The position numbers were made by a program, and so were the translations under genes. Below, in pieces: positions 16,545 to 46,400 of a DNA stretch of 64,000 nt. Below the pieces are notes generated by a model that was not told where the DNA came from, did not search any database, and worked only from the letters and a program-made list of their open reading frames with translations. How positions within the stretch are numbered: the first letter of the stretch is position 1; the number at the start of each line of letters is the position of its first letter. Source of the DNA: Bernardetia sp. ABR2-2B (lineage in GTDB: Bacteria; Bacteroidota; Bacteroidia; Cytophagales; Bernardetiaceae); the NCBI RefSeq assembly GCF_037126435.1, contig NZ_CP147020.1:1139001-1203000 (forward strand), given 5' to 3'.

Positions 16545-17333
16545 TTAGGCTCGTGAATAAATTGTAATACTTGAAGGGAGTTTTTGCAAAAACTCTTCCC
16601 ATCTATAAAAATACATCTTTCTGAGCTGTGTGTTTATTTTTCTTTCTTTGTAGATTCCATTTTTACTGAATCCTAGAGTTAAGCTCAAATCACACAAATC
16701 TTTATATCTTGAAGTATCTCCATCTACATAATTGAAGGAGTATTGAAATTTTGAAATTGTGTCTAGTGGAAGTTCTAGCTCTTTAAAATCATTTCTAAAA
16801 ACAAGCATATGTTTTTTAATGTCTATGGCTAATTTATGTTCTCTATCAACAGGAAGGATATACTTATGAATTGAAACAGGTAATTTTTTGATAATTCTCT
16901 TCATATTAAAAGATAAAATATACGATACCAATGCTCCTAAAATTAAAATTGATACTATTCCATACTCATTTTTACTTGAAGCGTAAAAGCAAAGCAGACT
17001 AAAAATGTAATAAAATATAGTAACAATAAATTTTAATGCATTGTAAGCCATATCTTGATAATAAAACCCTACAAAATCAAAAGGCAAGAACTCTAAAGGT
17101 TTTGCTTTTAGCCAAAGTGTTTGGGAAATAGGGATTTTCGAAAGCGAATTGGTTTGATTACAATGTTTTCCACTCAAATACTCCCAACTTTCCTCAAAAA
17201 AAGCAGACTTACAAGCTGAACAGATGACTATTTTATGTCCTGCTTCGATAAGTTCCCCTGTAATTGGATCAACTCGTTGTTGTAATAAAAAATTTTTGTG
17301 CTTTTGTTTTTCTAATTGGTGGGAGTAGTGCAT
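16545..17333 (-). CDS. Zinc-finger/membrane paralogue 3 of 3
   Basis: A 262-aa protein. Residues 1-70 are nearly identical to those of the neighbouring paralogue: VDPITGELIEAGHKIVICSACKSAFF in two parts, with C38-x2-C41 and H57-C58 as likely zinc ligands, and the conserved W50. The pattern resembles a RING/treble-clef finger in which the first CPxC is replaced by DPIT. Two membrane spans follow (about residues 100-150). The C-terminus (about 170-260) is beta-rich (KHMLVFRNDFKELELPL, ISKFQYSFNYV) and ends with a helix, compatible with a PH-like domain. Function unknown. It starts 3 bp after the stop of the upstream paralogue. Confidence 0.75.
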   Translation of the reverse strand: MHYSHQLEKQKHKNFLLQQRVDPITGELIEAGHKIVICSACKSAFFEESWEYLSGKHCNQTNSLSKIPISQTLWLKAKPLEFLPFDFVGFYYQDMAYNALKFIVTIFYYIFSLLCFYASSKNEYGIVSILILGALVSYILSFNMKRIIKKLPVSIHKYILPVDREHKLAIDIKKHMLVFRNDFKELELPLDTISKFQYSFNYVDGDTSRYKDLCDLSLTLGFSKNGIYKERKINTQLRKMYFYRWEEFLQKLPSSITIYSRA

Positions 17334-17336
17334 TTT

Positions 17337-18179
17337 TTATATTCTTTGTCCGATGATTTTTGTTTCTATATGTGAAGGTAATTTATTTATAAAATACTGC
17401 CATTGATTCATCTGATTTTCTTCAATTATTGTAGTCAATGTTTTTTGTTTAAGATCTTTATTATTTATAAAATTAAACTTTACTCTTAGCCTCACTTTGT
17501 ACATTTTTCTTGTAAAAGTGTATTCTATGTTTTCAATTTGTGAGAAAGGAATTGAGAATTTATCAACTGCGTTATTTATTATCAATCTACTCTTTTCTGA
17601 ATCAATATTTAATCTAAATGTATCATCAAAATCACTACAAAGGATAACCAACCTTTTATATTTTTGATATATTTTACTTTTCTCTGAATACTTTTCATCT
17701 GTCTTATAAAATATCCATATTCCAAAACTACCTATAACTAAACAAAAAGATAGAAATAGTATTACCCAAACATAAGATTCTAGTAAATTCTTCAAAACAG
17801 ATTCAAAATAGCCATAAATACCTAAGGGCAGTAAACAAATACCAAAAAACAACATACATAAAGTAAACCCAATTGTATGCCCTATTATTTTATCCTTTAG
17901 AGATATTTTACGCTTCTCAACATCCTCAAATTCAAAATCTAATTCTTTAAACTTAATTTTGATAATTTCAGCAACAGGGATTTTTGAAAGTGTCTTGGTT
18001 TGATTACAATGCTCTTTACCCAAATACTCCCAGCTTTCCTCAAAAAAGGCAGACTTACACGCTGAACAGATGACTATTTTATGTCCTGCTTCGATAAGTT
18101 CTCCTGTAATTGGATCGACTATTTGTTGTAATAAGAAATCTTTATGTTTCCGTTTTTCTAATTGGTGGGAGTAGTGCAT
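17337..18179 (-). CDS. Zinc-finger/membrane paralogue 2 of 3
   Basis: A 280-aa protein with the same architecture as its neighbours: finger (C38, C41, H57, C58, W50, DPITG at 22-26), two membrane spans at about 105-170, and a beta-rich tail (IDSEKSRLIINNAVDKFSIP, IENIEYTFTRKMYKV, WQYFINKLPSHI). The tail has little visible identity to that of the next gene, although the first 70 residues are almost the same. It lies 28 bp after paralogue 1 and 3 bp before paralogue 3, so all three are probably one transcript. Function unknown. Confidence 0.75.
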   Translation of the reverse strand: MHYSHQLEKRKHKDFLLQQIVDPITGELIEAGHKIVICSACKSAFFEESWEYLGKEHCNQTKTLSKIPVAEIIKIKFKELDFEFEDVEKRKISLKDKIIGHTIGFTLCMLFFGICLLPLGIYGYFESVLKNLLESYVWVILFLSFCLVIGSFGIWIFYKTDEKYSEKSKIYQKYKRLVILCSDFDDTFRLNIDSEKSRLIINNAVDKFSIPFSQIENIEYTFTRKMYKVRLRVKFNFINNKDLKQKTLTTIIEENQMNQWQYFINKLPSHIETKIIGQRI

Positions 18180-18207
18180 TTCTTTTTCTTAATATCTTCA
18201 ACATTTC

Positions 18208-19059
18208 TTAACGAGAAATTTGTTTTCTTCTACTAAATACTTTTAAATCTTGAGGTAGTCTTTTCAAAAATGATTTTAGCTTAGGAGCATCTTCTTCTCT
18301 AAAAATAGATTCATATTCTATTACATCATTCTTTTTTGTGGTAACACTAACTTGTAGCACCAAATAGCCATGTTTTTTCATCATTCTATCAGGATAATAA
18401 CTATATACAAATTTCTGAACATTAGAAAAAGGAATAGTTTTTTCTCCTAACTTTGTTTTAGAAACAATATTTTCGTTTTTGATATGAATAGCTAAATAAT
18501 TTTCTTTTGCGTAATTCTGACGCACATTTTTAATGAAATAATGATTTTTTCTCATCATTATATTCCCCAAGATAGTTGTTGGTTTTGAAGAAAGCGTATT
18601 TGCCACAGAATAAAAAACAACTACACCCAAAGGCATAATAAAAATATTGAAAATCATCTGAAAACCATCACTACCAAAAGAAGGAACAATTATCCAAGCA
18701 AAAACTATCAGAATCAAAGGCAAAAAAGCCATCAACGCACTTGTAGAGTTTTGCAAAAAACGATACATAAATTCATCTGAAAAAGAATCATTTTCTCTCA
18801 CATCAAAAGGAAAGAAAATTAAGGGTTCTTCATTGAAATGAATTTTTTCTGTTTTAGGAATTTTATTTAATGTTCCGTACTGGTCGCAATGTTGTTGGCG
18901 CAGGTAATTCCAGCTATCCTCCAAAAAAGCTGATTTACAAGCTGCACAAATAACGATGCAGTCGCCTTCTTGTATTTTGTCGCCTGTAATAGGGTCAATT
19001 CTGTTTTCGGAAAGGAAATCAGCATGTTGTCTTTCTTTTAAAAAATGGTAATGAAACAT
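18208..19059 (-). CDS. Zinc-finger/membrane paralogue 1 of 3
   Basis: A 283-aa protein, the first gene of the triplet and the most diverged. The finger keeps the exact spacing (IDPITGDKIQEGDCIVICAAC, W50, H57-C58). Two spans lie at about 110-165 (ALMAFLPLILIVFAWIIVP, IFIMPLGVVVFYSV). The tail has KNENIVSKTKLGEKTIPFSN, VQKFVYSYYPDRM and a final LKSFLKRLPQDL helix, parallel to the other two. The start ATG at 19059 is preceded by a divergent gene at 19.2 kb. Function unknown. The three genes make a small family cluster. Confidence 0.75.
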   Translation of the reverse strand: MFHYHFLKERQHADFLSENRIDPITGDKIQEGDCIVICAACKSAFLEDSWNYLRQQHCDQYGTLNKIPKTEKIHFNEEPLIFFPFDVRENDSFSDEFMYRFLQNSTSALMAFLPLILIVFAWIIVPSFGSDGFQMIFNIFIMPLGVVVFYSVANTLSSKPTTILGNIMMRKNHYFIKNVRQNYAKENYLAIHIKNENIVSKTKLGEKTIPFSNVQKFVYSYYPDRMMKKHGYLVLQVSVTTKKNDVIEYESIFREEDAPKLKSFLKRLPQDLKVFSRRKQISR

Positions 19060-19201
19060 AAGCAGTAGAGTTTTAGTAATTTTTTTATGGCTATCTTTAT
19101 GTACGATGTACTCTTTAAAATACGTTAAAACTACTTTTCTAGTTGCTCTTTTTGCTCAAAATCGGTCTATTTTAGTTACCGATGTAACTATTTTTATGCT
19201 T

Positions 19202-20113
19202 ATGAAGAATTATTTTTATTTGTTTTTATTCTTTCTTTCTTCCTGTAGTTCAAATCAAGAACAGAAAATTACAGAAGATTCTGAATTTATTCTATTAGAA
19301 AATATACAACAACAAAACTATTCAAAACGAATAGAAACAGGTTTTAAAAATATAGACACTTCTTGTGGAGGACTGGACAAACAACATTATTTGATTTATA
19401 AAGAACACGATTCACTCAAAAATATCCATCAAGAATACGGAATTTCGGAATATGGACAGAAATATCGAATTATTGACTCTATCAGCAATGGAAAAATTAT
19501 TGATTCAAAACGATTTTATTATGGTTTTGAAAATGTCAGTAATGCGTTAAGTCGTTCTATTTTAAATCAAATGCCTATTTCAGAAAAAACTCTTTTCGAA
19601 AAGATTGTTTATGAGTATGATTCTGAAAATAATTTGAGGAAAATTGATTATTATACACGAACAGACAAAGCCAAGTATTTATTTTTATCGGATACAAGTT
19701 GGAGTGAATGTGAAAGATACTCACTTCCTACTGTAAAAACTGATTATTTGGGTAAATATATGTCAGATTCTATGTATTTGTATCAAATAGCGATTTTCAA
19801 AAAAGATACTTTTCTAAATGAAGAACGAACTATGAAATATGTCTTTTCTAAAGATTCTGCTGAAGTGAATAAATTGAATTTGACTTCTCTTTCTAGTTAT
19901 CTAATGAAAGATTCCATAAGAATACAAATTTCTAAAAGTATAGATTTTGGAAAAGATACTTTAAGTAATGGTTCTTTTGATTATCATCACTCCAAAACTC
20001 CTTTAGATAGTATAAAGCACCAAACAATTAATATTGATTCTTGTCCTTTGGAATACAATTTACAAACAGAAAAGATAAAATATGGAAAATCAGTTTGGAT
20101 TATTTGTAATTAG
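19202..20113 (+). CDS. Lipoprotein of unknown function
   Basis: The ATG at 19202 (another at 19196) gives a compact lipoprotein signal, MKNYFYLFLFFLSSCSS, with the lipidated Cys in the SSC box. An upstream ATG at 19106 would hide it and is rejected. The mature protein of about 290 residues is rich in Asp, Ser, Lys and aromatic residues with beta-strand repeats (IVYEYDSENNLRKIDYYTR), reminiscent of YD/RHS-like short strands. No family is recognised. Its stop overlaps the stop of the convergent membrane-protein gene by 4 bp. Confidence 0.65.
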   Translation: MKNYFYLFLFFLSSCSSNQEQKITEDSEFILLENIQQQNYSKRIETGFKNIDTSCGGLDKQHYLIYKEHDSLKNIHQEYGISEYGQKYRIIDSISNGKIIDSKRFYYGFENVSNALSRSILNQMPISEKTLFEKIVYEYDSENNLRKIDYYTRTDKAKYLFLSDTSWSECERYSLPTVKTDYLGKYMSDSMYLYQIAIFKKDTFLNEERTMKYVFSKDSAEVNKLNLTSLSSYLMKDSIRIQISKSIDFGKDTLSNGSFDYHHSKTPLDSIKHQTINIDSCPLEYNLQTEKIKYGKSVWIICN

Positions 20114-20949
20114 CTTTCCTTCTTCTCAAAGGCTTTTAGTTCTGCGTTTGCCTCTTTACTTATAAGGATTAAGATTAAACCTAAAATTAATACACAAATT
20201 CCAAAAGCAGTTATCATTCCTTCTACTCCCATAGCTAATGATCCAAAAATGGACATAAAAATCAGAATTACTCCCCCAATTAACACTATACTAGAGAGTA
20301 TTATAAACATAATTTTTGCCCATTTAGGTTTTAACCAAAATAGAGTGGCAATTATACTTACAAATAATAAAGCTATTTCTGAAGTAGTGATACCTTTTAC
20401 AATGCTTGGAGAAAAAATAGAAATCATTAATAGAGGAAGTGCAAAAGCAGCAATTGTTATAGAATAAATACGATTGATAGACAAAAAATAATTAAGCTGA
20501 TTTGTCTTTTGTTCGTTTTCATAAAGCATTTGAGAATCTAATGTTTCAATATTTTTCTGTTTCTGTTTTTTATCTAAAAAACCTATTGCAGAGTAAGAAA
20601 AGAGAGATAAAAATATAATTGCACTAAGAAAAACAGGAATTGCTTCTAGGTTTTTAAAAGCATAGCCAAACTCATTGTTAAAAGATACTCCGATATAAAC
20701 TACCAGAAGTATACAGAATGAAATGAGATAACCTAGATACCTAGTTATAAAAGAACGAGTAGTTATCCAAAATACAGAAGATAGAAAACATAGAGCTGCA
20801 CAAATCACGATAACTATAAATAATGGCGTAAACGGACTTGAAGCTAAATCTTCTATTAACTTATTTAGTGAAATAGCAGAACTTATAACTATTAAACTCA
20901 ATCCCAAGTAGCAAATTCCAATACCTTTACGAATAGATATATTTTTCAT
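20110..20949 (-). CDS. Eight-span membrane protein, unknown
   Basis: A 279-aa protein with about eight hydrophobic segments (for example GICYLGLSLIVISSAISL, FIVIVICAALCFLSSVFWI, ITAFGICVLILGLILILIS) and a charged loop in the middle (KKQKQKNIETLDSQMLYENE). No transporter or enzyme motif is visible. It follows thrB by 8 bp on the same strand and so may be cotranscribed with thrA-thrB, taking the place where thrC would often lie. A role in amino-acid transport is possible but not shown. Confidence 0.65.
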   Translation of the reverse strand: MKNISIRKGIGICYLGLSLIVISSAISLNKLIEDLASSPFTPLFIVIVICAALCFLSSVFWITTRSFITRYLGYLISFCILLVVYIGVSFNNEFGYAFKNLEAIPVFLSAIIFLSLFSYSAIGFLDKKQKQKNIETLDSQMLYENEQKTNQLNYFLSINRIYSITIAAFALPLLMISIFSPSIVKGITTSEIALLFVSIIATLFWLKPKWAKIMFIILSSIVLIGGVILIFMSIFGSLAMGVEGMITAFGICVLILGLILILISKEANAELKAFEKKES

Positions 20950-34684: not shown

Positions 34685-37600
34685 ATGAAGAAATTTGACA
34701 CTCAAAAAAAAACCTATTACAAGATACTATTGCTTGGTATCTTTCTATCTTGCTTATCCATTACATCAATTTTTGCTCAAGCTCCTACTGGAAATAGAGG
34801 AGTTTATTTTGATGATAATGCTCAAATAACAAGTGCTTTACCAACTACCAATACAGATGACATAACTGTTTCTTTTTGGATAAAAAAACAAGCCAATCAA
34901 GTAGGAACTGTTATTTATAATGGAACACAAGGCACAAACGGATACGGAGTAAACCTAGATGCAACAGGTAGAGTAATCGTAGAACTAGGAGGAGTTATTT
35001 TACTAGTTTCAGATATTACTCTAATAACAAACGAATGGACTTATATTAGTGTCATCCGAAATTCTAGTACATGGTCAATTTATAAAAATGCTATAATAGC
35101 AAGTTTTACATCTGGCGTGGTTACCTCTAGTCCTCAAACTCCAACAAATAACTTTCAGTTTGGTAAAACAGCAATTACATCTAGTTTTATTGGTCAATTA
35201 GATGAAGTAAAAATATTCAATAGCGTTCGCTCTGCTGCAAATTTAACTACTGATATGAGTTCTACTACTTTAGATGGAGCAGTTGCTTTTTGGCGTTTTG
35301 AAGAAGCTAATGGAACGACTGTAAACGATGTGAGTACAAACTTTAACGGAACTTTTGCTACAGCTCCTAATACTCCTCTTCGTGCATTGAGAGTAAAAAA
35401 TACAAATGATAGTGGAACAGAATCATTAAGAGAAGTGATAGCAACAGCAGAAACAGATGCAGATAAAAATTATATCGATTTTAGTATTCCTAACGCACCT
35501 CCTCATACAATAAACTTAGCAAGTAATATTCCTAACATAACTACCTCTCTATTGATTGATGGTAGCTCACAAGAAGGCTTTGCAGTTTATTCTTCTACTG
35601 GGATGATAAATGTTAGAGGTACTACTGGCGTAGATTGGGGATTTAGGTTTTTTGGTGGAACAAATACGGATTCAGAAGTATATGGTCTATGGATTACTAA
35701 TTTCGATGGCTATGGAATATTTCAAAGCAATGCAACAAACATCAAAATAGGTGCAGAAAACAAAGGAAATGTCATAGGAAATATTTCAGGAAGAGGTATA
35801 TATATTTTAGGTGGAAATTCTATCATTGTTCAAGGTAACAGAATAGGAACAAACCCAGAGGGAACAGCAATAGCAGCAAATTCAGACTGGGGTATAGATG
35901 TACAAACCAATCCTGTTAGTGTTTTGATAGGTGGGCAAAGAGGTACTACCATAGGAAACCAAGGAGAAGGAAATCTAATATCTGGAAACACAGCAGGAGG
36001 TATAATCTTAAATGGCAATGGGCATAATGTACAAGGGAATTTAATCGGTACAAATATTTCTCAAGATGCAGCCATTCCAAACGGTTCGACAGGTATAACT
36101 GTACAATGTACGTCGTGTACAGCAGCTGCTCCAATAAATCAAATCGGTGGTTCTATTTCTGATCGAAGAGGAAATATCATAGGATATAACGAAATAGGAA
36201 TTAGAGTTGGGGGTCCTAATGTAAGGGTAGAAGGAAATCTAATCGGCATTAATCAGAATGATGTAACAATCCCTAATACTGATGAGGGAATAGCTATAGA
36301 CAATTATTTTTCTACAGTCGTACCTGCTAATATTGTAATAGGTAATACTTCACCTGACCTCCGTAATGTTATTTCAGGAAATAGCTTCGGTATAAATATT
36401 TCTGCTGCTGAAGGTACTCAAGTGATTGGAAATTATATAGGAACTACGAGTACAGGTATGGCAGCTCATCCAAACGGAAAGGGAATATCAATGCAGAGAG
36501 CTAATAATACTATTGGAGGAGCGACTGCTGCACATGGAAATCTTATTTCAGGAAATACTCAAATTGGGATAGAGCTATTTAGTAACGCAACAGGAATCAC
36601 AGTTCAAAACAATAGAATAGGTGTAAAATCAGATGGTACTGCATTAGGAAATGGGTCAGAAGGAATTTCTTGTTCAAGTGGCTCTAACTCAATTATATCT
36701 AATACTATAGCTTATAACGCAAATATTGGTGTACAAATATTTACTAGTACATCGATTTTAGTATCTGAAAATGAAATTTATTGTAATGGTAATACTGCTA
36801 TTACTTTGGGTGGTGGAGGAAATACAGAAAAACAAGCACCTATTATTACAGGTGTTACAACTTCTGCTATTTCAGGAACGTGTGCTACTTGTGCTGATGG
36901 GGAAGTGATAGAAGTATTTACAGATAATACAGCTTGTACAAATACTGGAGGAAGAAATTATCTAGGAAATACGACTGTTACAGGAAACAACTGGAGTTTT
37001 GCAGGTACTTTTTCTACTGCAAGTACATTTTCTGCTACTGCAACTGATGCTGCTAATAATACTTCTCCTTTTGGTTTTTTTCAAAGTCCAGAAATTGATA
37101 TACAAGGAAATGGAAATAGTATAACTGATGGCTCTACGGGTGTTTCTACTACTGATGATACAGATTTTGGAGATGTAACTACAAATAAGACAGTTACTTA
37201 TACCATCCGAAATATAGGGATAGAGCCATTGACAGTTTCTACTATTGGCATAACAGGAGCAAATGCTGGTAACTTTGCGGTAAGTAATATTGCTCTTCCA
37301 GCAACGGTTCCAGCTAATGGAAACATTACATTTGATGTTACTTTTACTTTATCATTGGGTGTTAATAATGCTATTGTTACTGTCAATAGTAATGACGATG
37401 ACGAAGCAGCTTATAATTTTGCAATACGAGCAACAGGAGTTATTCCTCCTAATTTCTTTGTAAAAACAACTGGTAATGATACAAATACAGGTGCAGATTT
37501 TGCCAATGCTTTTGCTACTTTAGAGAAAGCTCTTTCTGTAGCTCTTGCAGGGTCTAAAATATATGTAGCCACTGGTACATACAAACCTACACAAGAATTT

Positions 37601-40600
37601 GATTTTGATGCGAGTGGTGGAACAAATCCTAGAGAAGTTACCTTCCAAATTCCAGATAATGTAGAGGTTTATGGAGGTTTTACAGGAAACGAAACAGGAG
37701 CTATTACACAAGCTGTTTTAGATGCTCGTAACTTTACCACCAACGAGACAACGCTTAGTGGAGATATTGATAATAATGATGCTTTTTCAGGAACTTTTCC
37801 TTCTTTTACTTATGGAAATTATGCTGGAAATTCCTACCATGTAGTCTATACAAAAAATGTTTCCTCAGCTACAAAATTAGATGGCTTTACTATCAAGGCT
37901 GGAAATGCTGATGCACCCACTACTAGTGATAATAACGCAACAGGAGCAGGCTGGTTTAATGACGGACGTGGAACAGGAAATAGCTCTAACCCTACAATTA
38001 CGAATTGTTCATTCTTACAAAATACGGCTAGAGAAGTAGGAGGAGCAATCTACAATTTTGCAAGTCCACTAGGCAATGCTAGTCCTAATATAACAAACTG
38101 TTCATTTTCTCAAAATAGTGCAGGAGCTGCAGGAGCTGCAATGTATAATGGTGGAAATGAAGGAACATCTAGTCCTAGTATAGTAAATTGTATCTTCTTT
38201 CAAAATAGGTCTGATATTCATGGAGGAGCAATATTCAATGATGGAAATGCAGGAGGTACTTCTAGCCCTAGTATAATAAATTGTTCATTCTCTCAAAATA
38301 GAGCTATTATTGGTATTGGTGGTGCAATCTATAATTTTGGAACTGCTGGTACTTCTAGTCCTAGTATAATAAATTGTTCGTTCTCCTTAAATATAGCTGG
38401 TAATCTTGGAGGCGCAATGTATAATAAAGCAGATAATGGAGGAACTTCAAATACTGTCATTCGCAATTCTATTTTTTGGGAAAATTCAGATAATAATGGG
38501 ATAAGCTCTTGGTTCAATGAGAGTGCTCTACCTAACGTAGATTATTCTTTGATAGAAGAGGCTGAAAGTAACTTATCTGCTGGTACAGTAAGTGGAATAA
38601 ATAATGTCTTTACTCAAAATCCACTTTTTGTAAATACTGCTACTGGAGATTTGAGCCTTCAAGCAAATTCTTTAGCTGCTAATACAGGAGATAATACAGC
38701 TATAAATGCAACAGGTATTACTGTTGATGTAGCAGGAAACCCAAGAATATTTAATACGAATGTTGATAAAGGAGCTTATGAACTTCAATCTGCTTCTTCT
38801 GCTCCTCCTGAAATAAATGTAAGAGGAGGTGCATCATTGATTAGTATTTTAGATGGAGATACTACACCTAATACAGCAGATGATACAGATTTTGGTACAG
38901 TAGGTAGCACTAAAACAGTTACTTACACGATACAAAACCAAGGTGGTTCTGACCTTACAATTTCTTCTATTAATATAACTGGAACAGATGCTACTCAATT
39001 TGGAGTAAGTAGTTTTACAAATGGTACTATAATTCCAATAAATGGAAATACTACATTTGATGTAACTTACACACCAAATTCTCCAGCCCTACAAACAGCT
39101 ACAATTATTGTAAATAGTGATGATCCAAATGAAGCTGCGTATGACTTTGCAGTTAGTGGAACAAGTGGACTTGTAGCTTTCCCTTATGTAGAATCTTTTA
39201 CAACAGGGACTATACCTTCAAAATGGTCTGATGTAGCAGTTGCTGGAAATGACTTTTGGAGATTTTCAGGTAATGCTGATTATGCTGCTGAACTTATAGG
39301 AGACCATACAGTAGGTGGAGGTACAAACTATGCATGGGTAGATGGTTCTACTCCGAATGGAGCAGGTTTTGTAAATACACTTTATACTCCTTTTGTTGAT
39401 ATTAGTGGAGCAACAGACCCAGAAATTTCATTTTGGATATATTCTCATTCAACAGACCCTATAACAGATTATAATACAATTTTGGTAGAGTTTTATGATG
39501 GAGCAGCTTGGAATACTGTACTTAACAACAGAGGAAGTCTAGGAGATATGTGGAATAGAATAGAAGTAAACCTTGCTAGTTATACTATTACAGGTTCTGT
39601 ACAGCTTCGTTTCACGCTTACTCAAAATGGAAATCAGGCATTTTATAATGATATTTTGATTGATGATGTAGCTTTTGCAGAAAAAGTAATAGAGATAGAT
39701 GTAGTAGGAAATAATACGAGTATATCAGATGGTTCTACTACTCCTTCAGTTACAAATGATACAGATTTTGGAAATGTCCCTAATGGTTCTAAGACTGTAA
39801 CTTATACAATTCAGAGTATAGGATCTAAAGACTTGTCTATTTCTTCTATTAATATAACAGGTACAAATGCAACTGATTTTGTAGTCAATAATTTTACACC
39901 TCCTACAGTCATTAATCCATCTAACTCTGCTACATTTGATGTTACCTTTACACCCTCTTCAGAAGGCACAAAGACGGCTACAATTACTATCAATAATGAT
40001 GATACCGATGAAAGCGCATATGATTTTGCTATCACAGGAGAAAAGGATTGTAATGGAACTAATACAATTTCATCACAAGCAGGAACAGAAACACTTACTT
40101 CTGATGCAAGCCAAACAACACCTTTCTATACTTTCTATGAAGATAGTCGTAAGCAATTTCTTATAAGAGCAAGTGAGCTGACAAGTATAGCAGGTAGTTA
40201 TTCATTAACTAGGTTAGCATTTGATGTCAGTAATGCTCAATCTCAAACAATGAATAACTTCAATGTAAAAATAAAAACCACGACAGCAAATGAATTTACA
40301 TCAGCAACATTTGACGGTGGTTTTACAACAGTATATTCAGGAACTCATGTGGCAACTAATGGACTAAATTGGTTCAATTTTATAACTCCTTTTGCTTGGA
40401 ATGGTACGGACAATCTGATTGTTGAAGTATGTTTTGATAATACAAGTTTTACGAGTTCAAGTGAAGTGAGATATTCTACAACACCTTTTACAAGTGTAGT
40501 ATATGATTATGATGATGGAGCAACAGGTTGTAATCTTACAAATACGAATGTTGGTAGTGGAAGTAACAGACCTAATATAGTATTTGAGTTGGAAGCTCCT

Positions 40601-43300
40601 TTACCAGAGATTGACCTCTTAGGCAATGCTACTTCTATTACAGATGGAGACACAACTCCAAATGTAACAGACAATACAGATTTTGGAAGTGTAGCTACAA
40701 GTAGAACTATTAATTATACGATTCAAAATACAGCAGCAAGTTCTATTCTGACTATTGCAGATATTAGCGTAAGTGGAACTAATAGTGGTGATTTTGTAGT
40801 AAGTAATTTTACAAATAATACGACAGTCTTAGGAAGTAATAACACTACATTTGATATTACCTTTACACCAAGTGGAACAGGAACAAGAACAGCAACCATC
40901 ACTGTTAATAACGATGATTGTGATGAAGCTGCCTATGATTTCGTGGTACAAGGAACAAGTAGCACCACACCTCTTACTATTACAGCCACTACAACGTCAA
41001 TAAACTGTGTGGGTACAAATGGTGCAATCGATGTAACCATAACTGGAGGAACTCCTCCTTATAATTTCTCTTGGTCAAATGGAGAAACGACAGAAGATAT
41101 TTCTGCATCAGAAGTAGGAGAATATACAGTAAATGTTACGGATGGTACAACAACAACTTATACACGCACTTTTCTTATAGGTAATATAGTAGATTGGGAA
41201 AATATGAGCAATATCTCTATTACAGGTAATGTAGTTACGAAAGATAATACTATCGGCTGGACAAGTGGAGCAAACTCTGCCTCTACTCAACGAATAGCTC
41301 GTAATAATGATGGCTGGATAAGTAATACCATTACTGCTACTACAAGTTTCTATATGGTAGGTTTAGCCAAACCAAATGCAATTACCTCTTATACCTCTAT
41401 TGATTATGCATGGTATTTTGTAGGAAATGGTAGGGCAATCCCAAGCTACAACAAACAACGAGGAACAGTAGTAGAATACCAAATAGGAGACATATTTACA
41501 GTAGCTAGAGAAGGAAACCAAATAAAATTCTATAAAAATGGAGTAGTTACTCATCAATATACTATTAATTCTAATGAGGTTTTGATCGCTGACGTGGCTA
41601 TTTATTCAGGAAGTACAGGAGAGTTACAAACTTCATTTTGTGGTGCTAACGGTGGAACTCAAATTTATACAGCAGCTACTACAGGAATTGAATGTAATAA
41701 TGATGGAACTACTGGAAGTATCGATATTGAAGCTACAGGAGCAACTTATTTATGGTCGACAGGAGCAACATCTCAAGATATTTCTGGGTTAGATGCAGGA
41801 ACGTATCAACTAGAACTCACTAAAGATGGAATTTTATATACCTCTTCTTATCTAATTGGTGCGCCTCTTATGTGGACAAACTTAACAAACTTAGCTCTAA
41901 ACGGAGATGGACAATTAGACCATACAAGCTCAACAGGATGGAATACAAATGCAAATTCAACTCAAAAAGTAAGAGGAGATGGAGGAATTGTATTCAAGGT
42001 AGATAATACAACTACAGCATCTATGATTGGTCTATCCAAAACAGAAGAAGGAGCAGGATTTATGTCTATTGATTATGCTATCTATACGGCTGCCAATGGC
42101 AAATTATATGTGTTTGAAAATGGTGCTAACAGAGGAGATTTTGGAACATATCAAATAGGAGATGGGTTCAAAATAGAACGAGTAGGAACTCAAATATACT
42201 ATTCTAAAAATGGAACTATTTTCTATACAAGCACGAGTACAGCACCAACAGATGATTTGGAGGTGGACGTTAGTTTATCCACAGCGAATGCAACACTACC
42301 AGAAGTTTTGTTTATAAATTGTGCAGTAAATCTAGCTATTTCAGCTCCCCTATTAAATTGTGGTGTTAGCACAGGGTCAGCTACGGCTACATTGACAGGA
42401 GGAACATTTACCACTTCTTATGTTTGGAAAAATGGTGCTGGTACAACGGTAAGTACAACCAACACACTTAGCAACCAGCCTATTGGCTATTATACTGTTA
42501 CGGCAAGTGGTGCTTTTGGAAGCTTTACAAAATCAGTTCTACTTAGCTATCCTATTGATTTTGTAGTAGAAGCAAATACGATAATAAGTGGTACAACAGT
42601 AAGCAAAAGTATAGCAACTTCTACTTGGGATGCAGGTGTACATACAACCAATCTGTTGAATGCAAACCAAGATGGTTTTGTAGAAAATACAATTTTGGAG
42701 AATACTTCGTATATGTTTGGATTAACTCTGCAGAATACTAATCCTTCTTTTACTTCTATCAAATACAGATGGTATGTACTACTAAACGGAAGAGCAATTG
42801 CAGGTGGTGGAGTAGTCATTGACTACAATGAAGGAGACAAACTGCGTGTAGAGCGTGTCGGAAGTGTAGTAAAATATTTCCATAATAAAATAGAAATTAG
42901 CCAACAAAGCATAGACCCAAGTGAAGAACTAATTGCTGATGTAGCTATTTATACACCAAATGGAAATGCTGGTAGTTATAAAATTTCTTTCTGTAATAGT
43001 GGAATAATTGGAACCCCACCACTAAACAAAATACAAACTGCATCTAGTTTAGAAGTAGATACATTCAAAATCTACCCTAACCCAAGTACAGGTATTTTCA
43101 AAGTACATTTTGGTACATCTATTTCAGAAAATATTCAAGTAACCATATTTGATGGAATAGGTAGAAAAGTAAGTACACACACTTTTGAGAAAGGAAAACA
43201 AGATTTCAATGTAAACCTTAAAAACCAATCAAAAGGAATGTATCTTATTCATTTCAATCAAAACGGAGCTACCTACTCCAAACAGCTTATTTTAGAATAA
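34685..43300 (+). CDS. Giant modular T9SS-secreted surface protein (2871 aa)
   Basis: Signal peptide to about residue 32 (SITSIFAQ). Then: a LamG-like jelly roll (32-225); a right-handed beta helix (234-715, many GNLIxGN/GNRIGT turns); choice-of-anchor-D/Hydin-type beta modules (801-918, 1374-1493, 1667-1787, 1974-2092), each with DDTDFG, TVTYTIxN, FDVTFTPS; a second beta helix (920-1372) with five NCSFSQN repeats; a MAM/choice-of-anchor-J-like domain (1496-1665); a jelly-roll-like segment (1788-1973); and three cassettes of an SprB-like repeat plus a ~150-aa jelly-roll-like module (2095-2775). The last 80 residues are a T9SS type A sorting domain (FKIYPNPSTGIFKVHFG, GMYLIHFNQNG). It is probably exported by T9SS to the cell surface as an adhesin or polymer-binding protein. 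Confidence 0.9.
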   Translation: MKKFDTQKKTYYKILLLGIFLSCLSITSIFAQAPTGNRGVYFDDNAQITSALPTTNTDDITVSFWIKKQANQVGTVIYNGTQGTNGYGVNLDATGRVIVELGGVILLVSDITLITNEWTYISVIRNSSTWSIYKNAIIASFTSGVVTSSPQTPTNNFQFGKTAITSSFIGQLDEVKIFNSVRSAANLTTDMSSTTLDGAVAFWRFEEANGTTVNDVSTNFNGTFATAPNTPLRALRVKNTNDSGTESLREVIATAETDADKNYIDFSIPNAPPHTINLASNIPNITTSLLIDGSSQEGFAVYSSTGMINVRGTTGVDWGFRFFGGTNTDSEVYGLWITNFDGYGIFQSNATNIKIGAENKGNVIGNISGRGIYILGGNSIIVQGNRIGTNPEGTAIAANSDWGIDVQTNPVSVLIGGQRGTTIGNQGEGNLISGNTAGGIILNGNGHNVQGNLIGTNISQDAAIPNGSTGITVQCTSCTAAAPINQIGGSISDRRGNIIGYNEIGIRVGGPNVRVEGNLIGINQNDVTIPNTDEGIAIDNYFSTVVPANIVIGNTSPDLRNVISGNSFGINISAAEGTQVIGNYIGTTSTGMAAHPNGKGISMQRANNTIGGATAAHGNLISGNTQIGIELFSNATGITVQNNRIGVKSDGTALGNGSEGISCSSGSNSIISNTIAYNANIGVQIFTSTSILVSENEIYCNGNTAITLGGGGNTEKQAPIITGVTTSAISGTCATCADGEVIEVFTDNTACTNTGGRNYLGNTTVTGNNWSFAGTFSTASTFSATATDAANNTSPFGFFQSPEIDIQGNGNSITDGSTGVSTTDDTDFGDVTTNKTVTYTIRNIGIEPLTVSTIGITGANAGNFAVSNIALPATVPANGNITFDVTFTLSLGVNNAIVTVNSNDDDEAAYNFAIRATGVIPPNFFVKTTGNDTNTGADFANAFATLEKALSVALAGSKIYVATGTYKPTQEFDFDASGGTNPREVTFQIPDNVEVYGGFTGNETGAITQAVLDARNFTTNETTLSGDIDNNDAFSGTFPSFTYGNYAGNSYHVVYTKNVSSATKLDGFTIKAGNADAPTTSDNNATGAGWFNDGRGTGNSSNPTITNCSFLQNTAREVGGAIYNFASPLGNASPNITNCSFSQNSAGAAGAAMYNGGNEGTSSPSIVNCIFFQNRSDIHGGAIFNDGNAGGTSSPSIINCSFSQNRAIIGIGGAIYNFGTAGTSSPSIINCSFSLNIAGNLGGAMYNKADNGGTSNTVIRNSIFWENSDNNGISSWFNESALPNVDYSLIEEAESNLSAGTVSGINNVFTQNPLFVNTATGDLSLQANSLAANTGDNTAINATGITVDVAGNPRIFNTNVDKGAYELQSASSAPPEINVRGGASLISILDGDTTPNTADDTDFGTVGSTKTVTYTIQNQGGSDLTISSINITGTDATQFGVSSFTNGTIIPINGNTTFDVTYTPNSPALQTATIIVNSDDPNEAAYDFAVSGTSGLVAFPYVESFTTGTIPSKWSDVAVAGNDFWRFSGNADYAAELIGDHTVGGGTNYAWVDGSTPNGAGFVNTLYTPFVDISGATDPEISFWIYSHSTDPITDYNTILVEFYDGAAWNTVLNNRGSLGDMWNRIEVNLASYTITGSVQLRFTLTQNGNQAFYNDILIDDVAFAEKVIEIDVVGNNTSISDGSTTPSVTNDTDFGNVPNGSKTVTYTIQSIGSKDLSISSINITGTNATDFVVNNFTPPTVINPSNSATFDVTFTPSSEGTKTATITINNDDTDESAYDFAITGEKDCNGTNTISSQAGTETLTSDASQTTPFYTFYEDSRKQFLIRASELTSIAGSYSLTRLAFDVSNAQSQTMNNFNVKIKTTTANEFTSATFDGGFTTVYSGTHVATNGLNWFNFITPFAWNGTDNLIVEVCFDNTSFTSSSEVRYSTTPFTSVVYDYDDGATGCNLTNTNVGSGSNRPNIVFELEAPLPEIDLLGNATSITDGDTTPNVTDNTDFGSVATSRTINYTIQNTAASSILTIADISVSGTNSGDFVVSNFTNNTTVLGSNNTTFDITFTPSGTGTRTATITVNNDDCDEAAYDFVVQGTSSTTPLTITATTTSINCVGTNGAIDVTITGGTPPYNFSWSNGETTEDISASEVGEYTVNVTDGTTTTYTRTFLIGNIVDWENMSNISITGNVVTKDNTIGWTSGANSASTQRIARNNDGWISNTITATTSFYMVGLAKPNAITSYTSIDYAWYFVGNGRAIPSYNKQRGTVVEYQIGDIFTVAREGNQIKFYKNGVVTHQYTINSNEVLIADVAIYSGSTGELQTSFCGANGGTQIYTAATTGIECNNDGTTGSIDIEATGATYLWSTGATSQDISGLDAGTYQLELTKDGILYTSSYLIGAPLMWTNLTNLALNGDGQLDHTSSTGWNTNANSTQKVRGDGGIVFKVDNTTTASMIGLSKTEEGAGFMSIDYAIYTAANGKLYVFENGANRGDFGTYQIGDGFKIERVGTQIYYSKNGTIFYTSTSTAPTDDLEVDVSLSTANATLPEVLFINCAVNLAISAPLLNCGVSTGSATATLTGGTFTTSYVWKNGAGTTVSTTNTLSNQPIGYYTVTASGAFGSFTKSVLLSYPIDFVVEANTIISGTTVSKSIATSTWDAGVHTTNLLNANQDGFVENTILENTSYMFGLTLQNTNPSFTSIKYRWYVLLNGRAIAGGGVVIDYNEGDKLRVERVGSVVKYFHNKIEISQQSIDPSEELIADVAIYTPNGNAGSYKISFCNSGIIGTPPLNKIQTASSLEVDTFKIYPNPSTGIFKVHFGTSISENIQVTIFDGIGRKVSTHTFEKGKQDFNVNLKNQSKGMYLIHFNQNGATYSKQLILE
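37983..38470 (+). repeat. Tandem NCSFSQN coding repeats in the first giant gene
   Basis: Five units of about 33-40 codons with the pattern SPSIxNCSFSQNxA...GGAxYNxGxxGTS. At DNA level AATTGTTCATTCTCTCAAAA-like blocks recur. They form coils of a Pmp-like beta helix. Confidence 0.8.
40970..43010 (+). repeat. Triplicated SprB-like plus jelly-roll-like cassette
   Basis: Three units, each about 225 codons: an SprB-like domain (for example GAIDVTITGGTPPYNFSWSNG) followed by a module containing GLxKxN, SIDYAxY, YxxGDxxxxxRxGxxIxYxKNG and ADVAIY. Units begin near 40970, 41680 and 42335. Confidence 0.8.
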
Positions 43301-43324
43301 AAAATAAAACATCTTTTTTAAATC

Positions 43325-43360
43325 AAAAAACTCCATTTTCCTTGAAAGTGGAGTTTTTTT
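43325..43360. terminator. Terminator after the first giant gene
   Basis: The arms AAAAAACTCCATTT and AAAGTGGAGTTTTTTT form a stem with one bulged G, ending in seven T, 25 bp after the stop. It separates the two giant genes into independent units. Confidence 0.8.
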
Positions 43361-43416
43361 GTACCAAAAAATCAATCATTAACAATGTATATCCAACCTG
43401 TTTATACAAAAATCCG

Positions 43417-43424
43417 TATCTTTG
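43417..43424 (+). promoter_or_regulatory. -7 box TATCTTTG for the second giant gene
   Basis: An exact TAnnTTTG match, about 62 bp before the chosen ATG and downstream of the terminator at 43325. It lies inside the longer frame opened at 43342, which argues against that longer start. The -33 TTG is not clear. Confidence 0.55.
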
Positions 43425-43485
43425 TACACTACGTGTAACAAACTACCAATACTATTATATAGATTACTCTACTTCTAAATCATCT

Positions 43486-46400
43486 ATGAAAAATTTCAAT
43501 ACTCTACTCTTATTCCTATTACTAGGATTATCTGTTTCTTTTCTCTCAACAGCCCAACCCATTACCCAAAAAGAAAAATTACTTTCTGCCAGTTCACAGG
43601 CAGGAGCGGACTTCGGTCAGGCTGTTGCTATTGATGGTAATATTGCTATTGTAGGAGCTTATGTAGAAAATACTGCTGATGGTAGTAGTGCAGGTGCTGT
43701 TTATATTTATAGATTTGATGGAGCTGACTGGTTAATAGAACAAAGAATAACAGCTAGTGATGCCTTAGCAGGAGACAGGTTTGGTAGCTCTGTTGCTATT
43801 GATGGAAATCGTATCATTATAGGTGTTCCAAGTGCAGATAGTGATAAGGGAAAAGCATATATTTTTGAGTTTTCTACTTCTTGGAATGAGACAGCTATAC
43901 TGACAGCTAGTGATGGAGCTAATTTTAACAAGTTTGGAAATTCAGTTTCAATTTCTGGAGACTATGCCATTGTAGGTGCAAGTGACAAAGATATATCTGG
44001 AGACAACCTAGTAGGGAGTGCTTATATTTTTCAGCGTATAAGTGTTAGTAATTGGACAGAAAGAAGTATTTTATTAGCAGATATACCTACTGAAAACGAT
44101 TTATTTGGAGCTTCAGTAGGTATATCTGGGGATTATGCTATTGTAGGTGTTCCTAGAGATGATGATAATGGTTTTAGTTCGGGTTCAGCTTATATTTTTC
44201 AGCGTAGTGGTACTGACTGGAACTCAATAACTCCTATGAAACTAACAGCTAGTGATGCAGGTAGTAGCTCAGAGTTTGGTATTGCAGTAGCAATAGACGG
44301 AGATTATGCAGTTATTGGTGCTTATACAGATGACGCTATCACTACAAATGCAGGTGCAGGTTATGTATTTGTGCGAAGTGGAGGAAATGCATGGACAGAG
44401 CAGGAAAAGCTAACAGCAACAACTCCTACGGCTAGTGCTTATCTAGGATGGGATGTAGATATAGAAGGAGACTTGGTTGTTTTAGGAGGCTATGGAGAGA
44501 ATTCTCTTACTGGAATGATGGCTATCTATCAGCGAAGTGGCACTACTTGGACTCAGCAAGGAGGAGATTTACGAGCCTGTAACAAGGGAGTGGGAGACCT
44601 GTTTGGATGGTCTGTAGGTATATCTGGAAACAATGCTATTATAGGCGCACCAAGAGAAGATACAGGATTCAATAATGCAGGTGCTGCATATATATTTTGG
44701 GACGGAGCTGTAGCAGATCAAGAGATAAACATACTTGGAAATGGTCTAGATATACCAGATGGTAGTACAACTCCTAGCACAACTAACAATACAGACTTTG
44801 ATGATGTAACACTATCCTCTAGCAGGGAGATTACCTACCGAATAAATAATGAAGGAGGAACAGACTTGACCATTGGAGCAATAAGTATTACTCAGTCAGG
44901 AACTGACTTTTCAATAGTGACTTCTCCTGCAACTACTGTAGCAGGTTGTGATTTTACTACCCTGACAATAAAATTTACCCCCTCTTCATTAGGTGAAAAA
45001 ACAGCTACAATCAATATTGATAATGGAGATGCAGATGAAGGAATTTATAACTTTAATATACGAGGAACAGGTGTAATAAATGACATACCTGCCACAGAAA
45101 GAACTGCTTTGATTGCTTTATATAATGCTACGGGTGGTGCTGATTGGACAAATACAGTTGCAAATGACCAGCCTTGGGATATTGGAAACGCTACAAGTGA
45201 TGTCAGTACGTGGAAAGGAGTTACAGTTGCTGATGTTTCAGGTACTTTACACGTAACAGAAATAAAATTAAATGATAATAAACTAGTTGGAAATATCCCT
45301 CTTTCTTTTTGGGAAGAATTTTCTTTCTTAGAGCGTATAAACTTCTCTACATTCAATGGAAATACAACTAATCCCAATGATTTATCAGCTTCTACAACTC
45401 CCACTACTATAAACTTAAGTAATCTAAAAGAAATAGACTTAGGAAATTCTAAGTTTACTGATGCTAATTTTGAACCTAATTTTATATTTCTTCTAGCAAA
45501 TATTGAGAGAATAGATTTAGCAAGGAATACTTTTTCTAATAGCACAATTCCTAACGGAATAAATCCAAATAACAAGCTAACTGAATTAAACCTTTTCGCT
45601 TCCCAATTTGGAGGAATTATTCCAAGTAACGTTTGGCAAACAAGCCTTGTTTCTATAACCTTGGCAGCAAATAATTTTACTGGAAATATAGACGCAATTG
45701 GTAATGCAACGAATGTACAAGCTATAGAACTTTACAATAATCAACTTACAGGTTCTATTCCTGCTAGTATTGGGGGATTAACAGAACTCACTTATTTTAA
45801 TATTGGAGAAACAAATGGTGGAGTAGCCAATAATTTTGAAGGTAGCTCTGCTAACTCTATTCCTGATGAAATAGGAAACTTAGGAAAAATGGAAGATTTG
45901 TATCTCAATGGAATTAATCTAAAAGGAGAAATCCCTGCAACAATTAAAGATTTAGGCTTTGATGGAAGTAATCATAATTTGCGTTATATTAACCTTGTCA
46001 ATAATAACCTTGAAGGTGCTATTCCTACAGAAATAGGAAGTTTAATAAGCTTAGAAGAACTTTACTTGAGCAATAATAACCTTACTGGCTCTATTCCTAC
46101 TGAGCTAGACAACCTTACTGCTTTAACAGACATTAGCCTTAGTAGGAATGGTCTTAGTGGAAGTATTCCAGACTTATCTGGTCTAATTAACTTAAGAAAG
46201 TTGTACTTAGAAGAAAATGCTTTAGAAGGCTCATTTGCTGATTTGGTAACAACAAGCCTAAGCAATTTGCCTAAGCTAAACAGTTTAGGCTTAAATGACA
46301 ATCAGCTAGAAGGAGTTATTCCAAGCGAAATAAACCAAGTAGGACTTGATGTCTCTCATAACTTAGTATATCTAAACTTAGGAAATAATAATTTAGAAGG

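What the first reader, a model, noticed from the sequence alone, without database searches (positions are those of the whole stretch)
16545..19059. Three tandem paralogues with a degenerate RING-like finger, two membrane spans and a beta-rich tail
Seen: all three proteins keep DPITG, C38-x2-C41, W50 and H57-C58 with identical spacing, then two hydrophobic spans, then a beta-rich tail. Known: prokaryotic RING/treble-clef fingers use a CPxC...CxxC...H/C layout; here the first CPxC is DPIT, so one of two zinc sites is lost. Inference: a membrane-anchored single-zinc finger with a possible PH-like cytosolic tail, expanded by duplication, is an undescribed family candidate for ubiquitin-like, stress or conflict systems.
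Basis: partly seen in the sequence, partly recalled or inferred. Interest (0 to 1): 0.72.

Follow-up and report, generated by a model that had tools for sequence, protein, structure and literature searches.

The report
Expanded bacterial membrane RING-like fingers
A bacterium carries about fifty membrane proteins that share a cut-down version of the RING finger used by eukaryotic ubiquitin ligases, together with genes resembling parts of a ubiquitin pathway, so they may be ubiquitin-ligase-like proteins in a bacterium, although no activity has been tested.

Summary
The three paralogues are real: DPITG, C38-x2-C41, W50, H57-C58, two membrane spans, beta-rich tail. They are 3 of about 52 copies in this genome. 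Nine finger positions are invariant in 67 of 67 proteins from three genomes. AlphaFold2 models the finger confidently; the first 18 rows of the structural second look are RING domains, Z 5.0-6.1. The tail looks PH-like; other copies carry RDD or TPR parts. The same genome has a Ubl-E2-DinB-JAB gene run. Its E2 occurs in exactly the 8 of 39 genomes that have the finger. Over 395 Bacteroidota the E2 profile hits only this genome and two that hold a weak finger relative, where E1, Ubl, E2, JAB and the finger protein lie in one operon-like run. Best reading: membrane-anchored, one-zinc RING-like E3 candidates of a bacterial ubiquitin-like pathway. Against: no biochemistry, zinc geometry unmeasured, no E1 located in this genome, and a weak sequence link to the operon-borne finger.

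The parts
16545..17333 (-). paralogue 1, 262 aa: RING-like finger, two membrane spans, PH-like tail
   Evidence: ORF; AF2 mean pLDDT 82.5, blocks over residues 1-70 at 93-98
17337..18179 (-). paralogue 2, 280 aa: same layout
   Evidence: ORF; alignment; spans
18208..19059 (-). paralogue 3, 283 aa: same layout
   Evidence: ORF; alignment; spans; closest tail L051:2155-2994
17130..17333 (-). finger domain of paralogue 1 (residues 1-68)
   Evidence: AF2 (mean pLDDT 93.5, pTM 0.80); structural neighbours
17976..18179 (-). finger domain of paralogue 2 (residues 1-68)
   Evidence: 0.89 nucleotide and 0.88 amino-acid identity to the finger of paralogue 1, against 0.47 and 0.26 in the tails
18856..19059 (-). 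finger domain of paralogue 3 (residues 1-68)
   Evidence: alignment
17160..17222 (-). C38 to C58 of paralogue 1, the presumed single zinc site (C38, C41, H57, C58)
   Evidence: all four invariant in 67 of 67; zinc binding is inferred
17256..17270 (-). DPITG of paralogue 1, at the place of the first CPxC pair of RING fingers
   Evidence: D22 and T25 invariant in 67 of 67
16884..17063 (-). membrane hairpin of paralogue 1 (helices 91-118 and 123-150)
16548..16844 (-). PH-like tail of paralogue 1 (residues 164-262); structural alignments also begin at about residue 80, before the hairpin
17709..17873 (-). membrane hairpin of paralogue 2 (residues 103-157)
18601..18741 (-). membrane hairpin of paralogue 3 (residues 107-153)

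Best explanation
The three genes encode membrane-anchored RING-like proteins that most likely act as E3-type adaptors of a bacterial ubiquitin-like conjugation pathway. The N-terminal finger is a RING fold in which zinc site 1 (C1, C2, H5, C6) has been replaced (DPIT in place of CPxC, F/L-x-x-S/T-W in place of H-x-x-C-W) while site 2 (C38, C41, H57, C58) is kept, the same site that remains in the one-zinc SP-RING of SUMO ligases (ligand numbering and this parallel are recalled). The finger would dock the Ubl-loaded E2 at the inner membrane; the variable PH-like, RDD or TPR part would choose substrate or place; the JAB protease would trim the Ubl precursor and remove conjugates. Shown: conservation, predicted folds, fusions, co-occurrence with the E2, linkage to E1, Ubl, E2 and JAB genes in a distant genus. 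Inferred: zinc binding, E2 binding, ligase activity, substrates, JAB's role.
For: Fold: finger model pLDDT 93.5; the first 18 rows of the second look are RING domains, Z 5.0-6.1, rmsd 2.0-2.7 over 51-58 residues. Pathway in this genome: Ubl (YukD 28.0 bits, cut-off 27), E2 (UQ_con 27.2, cut-off 27; HPN and Cys aligned with UBE2A, E 7.7e-6), DinB and JAB (27.7, cut-off 22.5). Ubl and E2 lie side by side in 8 of 8 finger genomes. The E2 is in the same 8 of 39 genomes as the finger and in none of the other 31, one match per genome against 8-56 fingers. E2 profile over 395 Bacteroidota: this genome, G101 and G194 only; the last two are the ones whose weak finger match lies in a VWA-TM-finger-TM-FHA protein encoded just after nSTAND1-E1-Ubl-E2-JAB on the same strand. 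A ThiF-family E1 (183 bits) lies 2.3 kb from a finger array in sister genome G006 and matches the operon E1 at E 5e-67. In 2 of 8 E2 loci read, finger genes lie 1.5 and 4.7 kb from the run.
Against: No biochemistry. No E1 located in this genome: never searched genome-wide, absent from the stretches read. In 6 of 8 E2 loci no finger gene lies in the stretch read, and the own finger sites have no conserved partner gene. No Prok-RING_1 match passes the cut-off, and at E up to 0.1 that model also rings in 8 of 14 control genomes. Foldseek alone is weak (best E 0.37) and its list also holds PHD, C1, LIM and DNA polymerase D fingers; Z is under 8. The match to the operon-borne finger is weak for 395 genomes (E 6.5e-5 and 1.4e-4 per genome; 20.3 and 19.0 bits against at most 6.0 in 5000 shuffles); that finger lacks one Cys of the pair and is shorter between W and HC. 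Two other weak finger matches, in genomes without the E2, were rejected by eye. No JAB is seen beside the E2 in G002. The G008 Ubl and E2 score below the Pfam cut-offs (20.0 and 24.4 against 27). The Pro and Arg typical of RING E3s near the last ligands (recalled) are missing. Genomes are not independent: two genera in the family, one outside.
Confidence: 0.55

Rival explanations
1. The finger is a reader: it binds the Ubl or Ubl-tagged proteins at the membrane and takes no part in transfer.
For: Co-occurrence and linkage fit a reader as well as a ligase; two usual RING E3 features (Pro, Arg; recalled) are missing.
Against: The leading structural neighbours are RING domains; I recognised no other E3 candidate among the operon proteins of L135.
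Confidence: 0.2
2. The finger is a general adaptor or regulatory module of membrane proteins with no tie to the Ubl pathway, like the zinc ribbons often seen at the N-terminus of bacterial membrane proteins (recalled); the co-occurrence is shared ancestry.
For: Fused to diverse parts (PH-like, RDD, TPR); no conserved neighbours at the own sites; presence is clade-bound.
Against: Same-family genomes without the finger also lack the E2 (G007, G009, G010); a distant genus has both in one gene run.
Confidence: 0.2
3. A polymorphic conflict or immunity family whose fast-changing tails recognise invaders.
For: Tandem arrays, 8-56 copies per genome, divergent tails with homogenised fingers.
Against: No toxin or effector domain recognised in the 13 family proteins scanned; no relative confirmed in the viral collection; no PADLOC model for the one finger protein of the window scanned; tails of closest pairs between genomes show dN below dS, and several loci share neighbours with counterparts in G001, so the genes look stable.
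Confidence: 0.05

Closest known systems
Prok-RING_1 (PF14446)
   Same: 49 of 53 fingers match it, best E 1.2e-5; in member 1 the matched stretch is residues 25-62, which takes in C38, C41, W50, H57 and C58
   Different: below the 29.1-bit cut-off wherever scored (best 27.3 bits); site-1 ligands replaced
RING-H2 domains (RNF38, RNF12, RNF13, RNF165/Ark2C)
   Same: predicted fold over residues 1-62, Z 5.0-6.1
   Different: four of eight ligands missing; bacterial; no activity known
SP-RING of SUMO ligases (recalled, no call)
   Same: one zinc kept at site 2, site 1 lost
   Different: no zf-MIZ match appeared in the Pfam scans; other partners
Bacterial RING domains said to lack two of four ligand pairs (PMC11354881, one passage citing Pisano et al.)
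   Different: I did not see those sequences, so overlap with this family is not excluded; copy number and membrane layout are what I add
Bacterial Ubl systems: BilABCD; the FtsH-ternary tri-ligase system
   Same: E1, E2, Ubl and JAB genes, and a RING-type E3 in the latter (passages of PMC11354881 and PMC7159879)
   Different: here a single-domain Ubl, an HPN-type E2 and tens of membrane-anchored fingers scattered over the chromosome

Membership tests
Prok-RING_1 (PF14446) | score over the curated cut-off of 29.1 bits | tested here: not met
   own genome best 25.0 bits; best over 291 genomes of the order 27.3 bits, at most 22 candidates scored per genome
RING finger | RING fold | tested here: met
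   on a predicted model only: first 18 rows RING domains, Z 5.0-6.1; Foldseek E only 0.37
RING finger | eight zinc ligands in two sites | tested here: not met
   position 22 is D and 25 is T in 67 of 67; 46 is H in 2 of 67; 49 is S or T in 67 of 67
RING finger | bound zinc | not testable with these tools
   no coordinates or metals in the model outputs
RING-type E3 ligase | binds an E2 and promotes transfer of a Ubl | not testable with these tools
   genomic association only
SP-RING (zf-MIZ) | sequence family match | tested here: inconclusive
   not among the families listed for the trio or for 53 fingers; the filters drop weak matches
PH-like domain (tail) | PH-like fold | tested here: met
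   on a predicted model only: six strands at 167-238 and a helix at 239-250; most rows are PH-like as far as I know their folds, Z up to 8.2, bacterial PH 3dcx at 7.3; a seventh strand is not assigned
Ubiquitin-conjugating enzyme (the own E2) | UQ_con over cut-off, HPN and catalytic Cys | tested here: met
   27.2 against 27 bits; H89, P90, N91 and C99 invariant in 8 of 8
Complete E1-E2-Ubl-JAB pathway in this genome | a dedicated E1 | tested here: inconclusive
   E1 found in sister genome G006 and in G101/G194, not in the own stretches read
BilABCD system | BilA with two Ubl domains and an E2 with a CEHH motif (passages) | tested here: not met
   the Ubl is a single 84-aa protein; the E2 is of HPN type

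The most novel reading that the evidence does not exclude
A bacterial ubiquitin-like system organised like the eukaryotic one: a single E2, a Ubl and a JAB protease (copy numbers of the last two not searched) serving about fifty membrane-anchored, one-zinc RING-type E3s whose substrate-choosing tails diversify while gene conversion keeps the E2-docking finger uniform within tandem arrays.
Probability: 0.42. Interest if true: 0.93.

Novelty: new variant of a known kind. Interest (0 to 1): 0.8.

Why it matters
Described bacterial ubiquitin-like systems have few ligases, and many are thought to work without an E3 (recalled). A bacterium with one E2 and tens of RING-like proteins would show E3 diversification outside eukaryotes, add a case of a RING that lost one zinc site and kept the other, and offer a place to ask what a bacterium tags at its membrane. 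It also gives a testable partner to RING-like sequences that lie below the Pfam cut-off.

Tried and rejected
Sequence search of solved structures with the finger profile gave chance-level hits only (best E 0.52; a NOSIP stretch resembling the DPITG region at E 0.74). The Prok-E2_B model (PF14461) found nothing, but no control genome rang, so it says nothing. Viral collection: 24 pattern matches, none confirmed. Neighbours of the own finger genes: one family recurs in 8 of 28 own loci; it includes a window protein with Reg_prop and OmpA matches, and I took it for a common family and did not follow it.

Two weak finger-profile matches were set aside by eye. G265 (E 6.4e-5): the frame at the match shows no CxxC...HC arrangement. 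G189 (E 5.7e-4): 21 positions with one Cys, W and HC at the family spacing, but without the first Cys or DPIT. Neither genome has the E2. If both were counted as finger genomes, two of four would lack the E2, and the genus-level chance figure would be about 4e-4 (my arithmetic) instead of 7e-5.

The start of the PH alignments at residue 80 suggests that the hairpin is inserted after the first strand; only aligned ranges were seen, so this stays a suggestion. The FACT histone-chaperone PH domains that lead that list are taken for fold only.

Span counts rest on a 19-residue hydropathy window: of 67 proteins 51 have two spans, 6 one, 7 three, 3 four; some are artefacts, such as spans scored inside the finger. 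The raw topology count (flanks richer in K/R than the loop in 40 of 42) is biased because the flanks are longer than the loop, so I quote densities. dS by NG86 saturates in many tail pairs, and 2 finger pairs gave -1.

The gene-conversion test kept 37 pairs from 25 of 51 own genes (reciprocal best tail, tail identity at least 0.5, four other genomes of which only some copies were fetched); the other 26 gave no pair. Several pairs share one own gene, so the Fisher P of 1e-4 is optimistic. L031/L075 differs the other way: tail 0.95, finger 0.86.

I left the odds as they were, since none of these was a support I had leaned on.
Full report
What is there. The window holds three adjacent minus-strand ORFs of 262, 280 and 283 aa. 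On one side lies a GldN gene (218.8 bits). On the other lie two ORFs without a Pfam family over cut-off (19106-20113 plus, 20110-20949 minus), then a GHMP kinase and an aspartate kinase/homoserine dehydrogenase gene. All three proteins share DPITG, C38-x2-C41, W50 and H57-C58 at the same spacing, two hydrophobic spans and a variable tail. Pfam gives Prok-RING_1 only below its cut-off (E 0.012-0.087, 13.2-15.9 bits against 29.1) besides other sub-threshold matches; NCBIfam gives nothing over cut-off.

How many. Searching the own genome with paralogue 2 gives 52 matches at E up to 1, of which 51 cover the finger; a finger profile gives 52. I read 51, at about 29 places, in arrays of up to five. 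Of the 11 genomes of the family searched, 8 have the finger: 52, 23, 56, 41, 12, 17 and 40 copies in the own genus and 8 in another; three genomes of two further genera have none. Of 39 relatives, 8 have it. The named records that match come from one Bernardetia, one Flexibacter and one Cytophagales MAG, so the window most likely comes from Bernardetia or a near relative (inference).

The finger. In 67 proteins from three genomes D22, T25, C38, C41, S43, F45, W50, H57 and C58 are invariant, and R20, G26, Q60 and P68 are kept in 66. In a second set of 53, C58 is lost in one 160-aa ORF and S43 varies. Set against RING fingers in order, CPxC becomes DPIT, CxxC stays, HxxCW becomes F/L-x-x-S/T-W, and the last pair becomes HC: site 1 is lost as a set and site 2 kept (inference; ligand numbering recalled). 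AlphaFold2 gives the finger pLDDT 93.5 and pTM 0.80. In the structural second look the first 18 rows are RING domains (RNF38 Z 6.1, rmsd 2.2 over 58 residues), reaching from residue 1 to 61 or 62; further down come LIM, C1, ZZ and PARP fingers, and the tool warns that Z under 8 may mean only a common arrangement. Foldseek alone is weak, best E 0.37 for RNF13, with PHD, C1 and DNA polymerase D fingers also listed. Of 53 fingers scanned, 49 match Prok-RING_1 (best E 1.2e-5), but none passes its cut-off in the own genome or in 291 genomes of the order, and at E up to 0.1 the model rings in 8 of 14 control genomes, at 0.001 in 1 of 14. So it is RING-like, and not a member of PF14446 by Pfam's rule.

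The rest of the protein. As far as I know the folds, most of the 50 structural rows are PH-like (Pob3 Z 8.2, bacterial 3dcx Z 7.3); two are channel hairpins, 3t9n and 9go3. Of 51 own proteins, 42 have exactly two spans after the finger; K/R density is 0.167 before, 0.094 between and 0.194 after them, so finger and tail are probably both cytosolic. Other copies carry other parts: of ten proteins scanned, two have RDD over cut-off (41.2 and 25.7 bits against 24.1) and one has TPR over cut-off.

How it evolves. Within arrays the fingers are alike and the tails are not: paralogues 1 and 2 have 0.89 nucleotide identity in the finger and 0.47 in the tail. The change comes at about codon 66-88, and the 100 bases upstream are 0.41-0.60 alike in all but one of the array pairs listed. 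In 37 orthologue pairs the orthologue tail is closer than the tail of the best finger paralogue in 37 of 37, but a paralogue finger is at least as close as the orthologue finger in 13 of 19 pairs from arrays and 1 of 18 from single genes (Fisher P 1e-4, pairs not independent). This fits gene conversion of the finger within arrays and suggests that the finger must stay fit for one common partner while the tails diverge (inference).

The partner. An E2 family search of the own genome rang at C1:194934-195200, 27.4 bits, with 0 of 14 control genomes ringing. On one strand there lie a YukD-type Ubl of 84 aa (28.0 against 27), an E2 of 204 aa (27.2 against 27) with HPN and a Cys eight residues on, aligned with UBE2A, a DinB protein and a JAB protein (27.7 against 22.5). 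In the other genus G008 the Ubl and E2 score 20.0 and 24.4, below cut-off. Ubl and E2 lie side by side in 8 of 8 finger genomes; JAB was seen in 6 of 8 (not in G002, and in G003 the contig ends first) and DinB in 6 of 8. The Ubl is 95-100% identical to this genome's within the genus and 76% in G008. Its end is conserved to ATDAG, followed by K, R or YHLC, which looks like a precursor to be trimmed to a C-terminal glycine (inference). Finger genes lie near the run in 2 of 8 loci: 1.5 kb upstream on the same strand in G004, 4.7 kb from JAB in G005.

Co-occurrence. The E2 is found in 8 of 39 relatives, the very 8 that have the finger, and in none of the 31 that lack it, three of them of the same family. 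Over 395 Bacteroidota the finger profile gave this genome and four weak matches, two of which I rejected by eye (see Tried and rejected). The E2 profile gave this genome and the other two, G101 (E 1.1e-8) and G194 (E 9e-8), and nothing else. With genera as units two of 171 have the E2 and the same two have the finger: chance 7e-5, given the rejections. In G194 there follow one another on one strand an nSTAND1 ATPase, an E1 (ThiF 168 bits), a Ubl ending PGGK (YukD 26.2, just under cut-off), an E2 (34.0 against 27), a JAB protein (31.9 against 22.5) and, 16 bases on, the VWA-TM-finger-TM-FHA protein. G101 has the same order; its Ubl ends in PG. That finger scores 20.3 and 19.0 bits against at most 6.0 in 5000 shuffles, but lacks one Cys of the pair. 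A related E1 (E 5e-67) lies 2.3 kb from a finger array in sister genome G006. In this genome none was found in the stretches read, and no genome-wide search was left.

What is known. I saw passages only. PMC1779556 describes bacterial gene clusters of Ubl, E1, E2 and JAB. PMC7159879 describes a system with E1, RING-type E3, JAB and a Ubl-E2 fusion. PMC11354881 describes BilABCD and says, citing Pisano et al., that bacterial RING domains lack two pairs of zinc ligands and keep two; one-zinc bacterial RINGs are thus not new as such. Burroughs 2011 on prokaryotic RINGs is not held, so I cannot say that this family is missing from it. In the held library no paper has both Bernardetia and RING finger, or Flexibacter litoralis and paralog. 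PADLOC has models near the E1 (E1-E2 8e-17, BilD 7e-8), JAB (4e-6) and, weakly, the E2 (0.006), but none for the Ubl or the two finger proteins scanned.

Verdict. The most likely reading is a lineage-expanded, membrane-anchored family of one-zinc RING-like E3 candidates for a bacterial Ubl pathway, at 0.55. The main gaps are the zinc geometry, the own-genome E1 and any biochemical test.

Noticed in passing
L135:4050-16071 and L134:4176-16123: Run of nSTAND1 ATPase, E1, Ubl, E2, JAB, VWA-finger-FHA protein and an ion channel, beside a PAAR gene on the other strand in L135; possibly an undescribed Ubl system.
   Followed up: partly
L116:7482-9770: Ubl-E2-DinB-JAB run; the Ubl is 95-100% identical within the genus. 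The DinB protein between E2 and JAB is unexplained.
   Followed up: partly
L136:13723-14955: E1-like ThiF protein with a Cys-rich C-terminal part, 2.3 kb from a finger array.
   Followed up: partly
L031:5174-6010 with L075:2968-3828: Tails 0.95 alike in nucleotides but fingers only 0.86, as if the finger had been replaced in one lineage.
   Followed up: no
L018:7390-7809, L025:5992-6459, L043:5797-6213: Short finger ORFs of 138-155 aa that lack most of the tail; truncated copies or a separate form.
   Followed up: no
window 34685-54033: Two very long ORFs in a row (2871 and 3563 aa), not examined.
   Followed up: no
L027:5977-7407: Finger joined to TPR repeats (476 aa), the only TPR form among the ten proteins scanned.
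   Followed up: no
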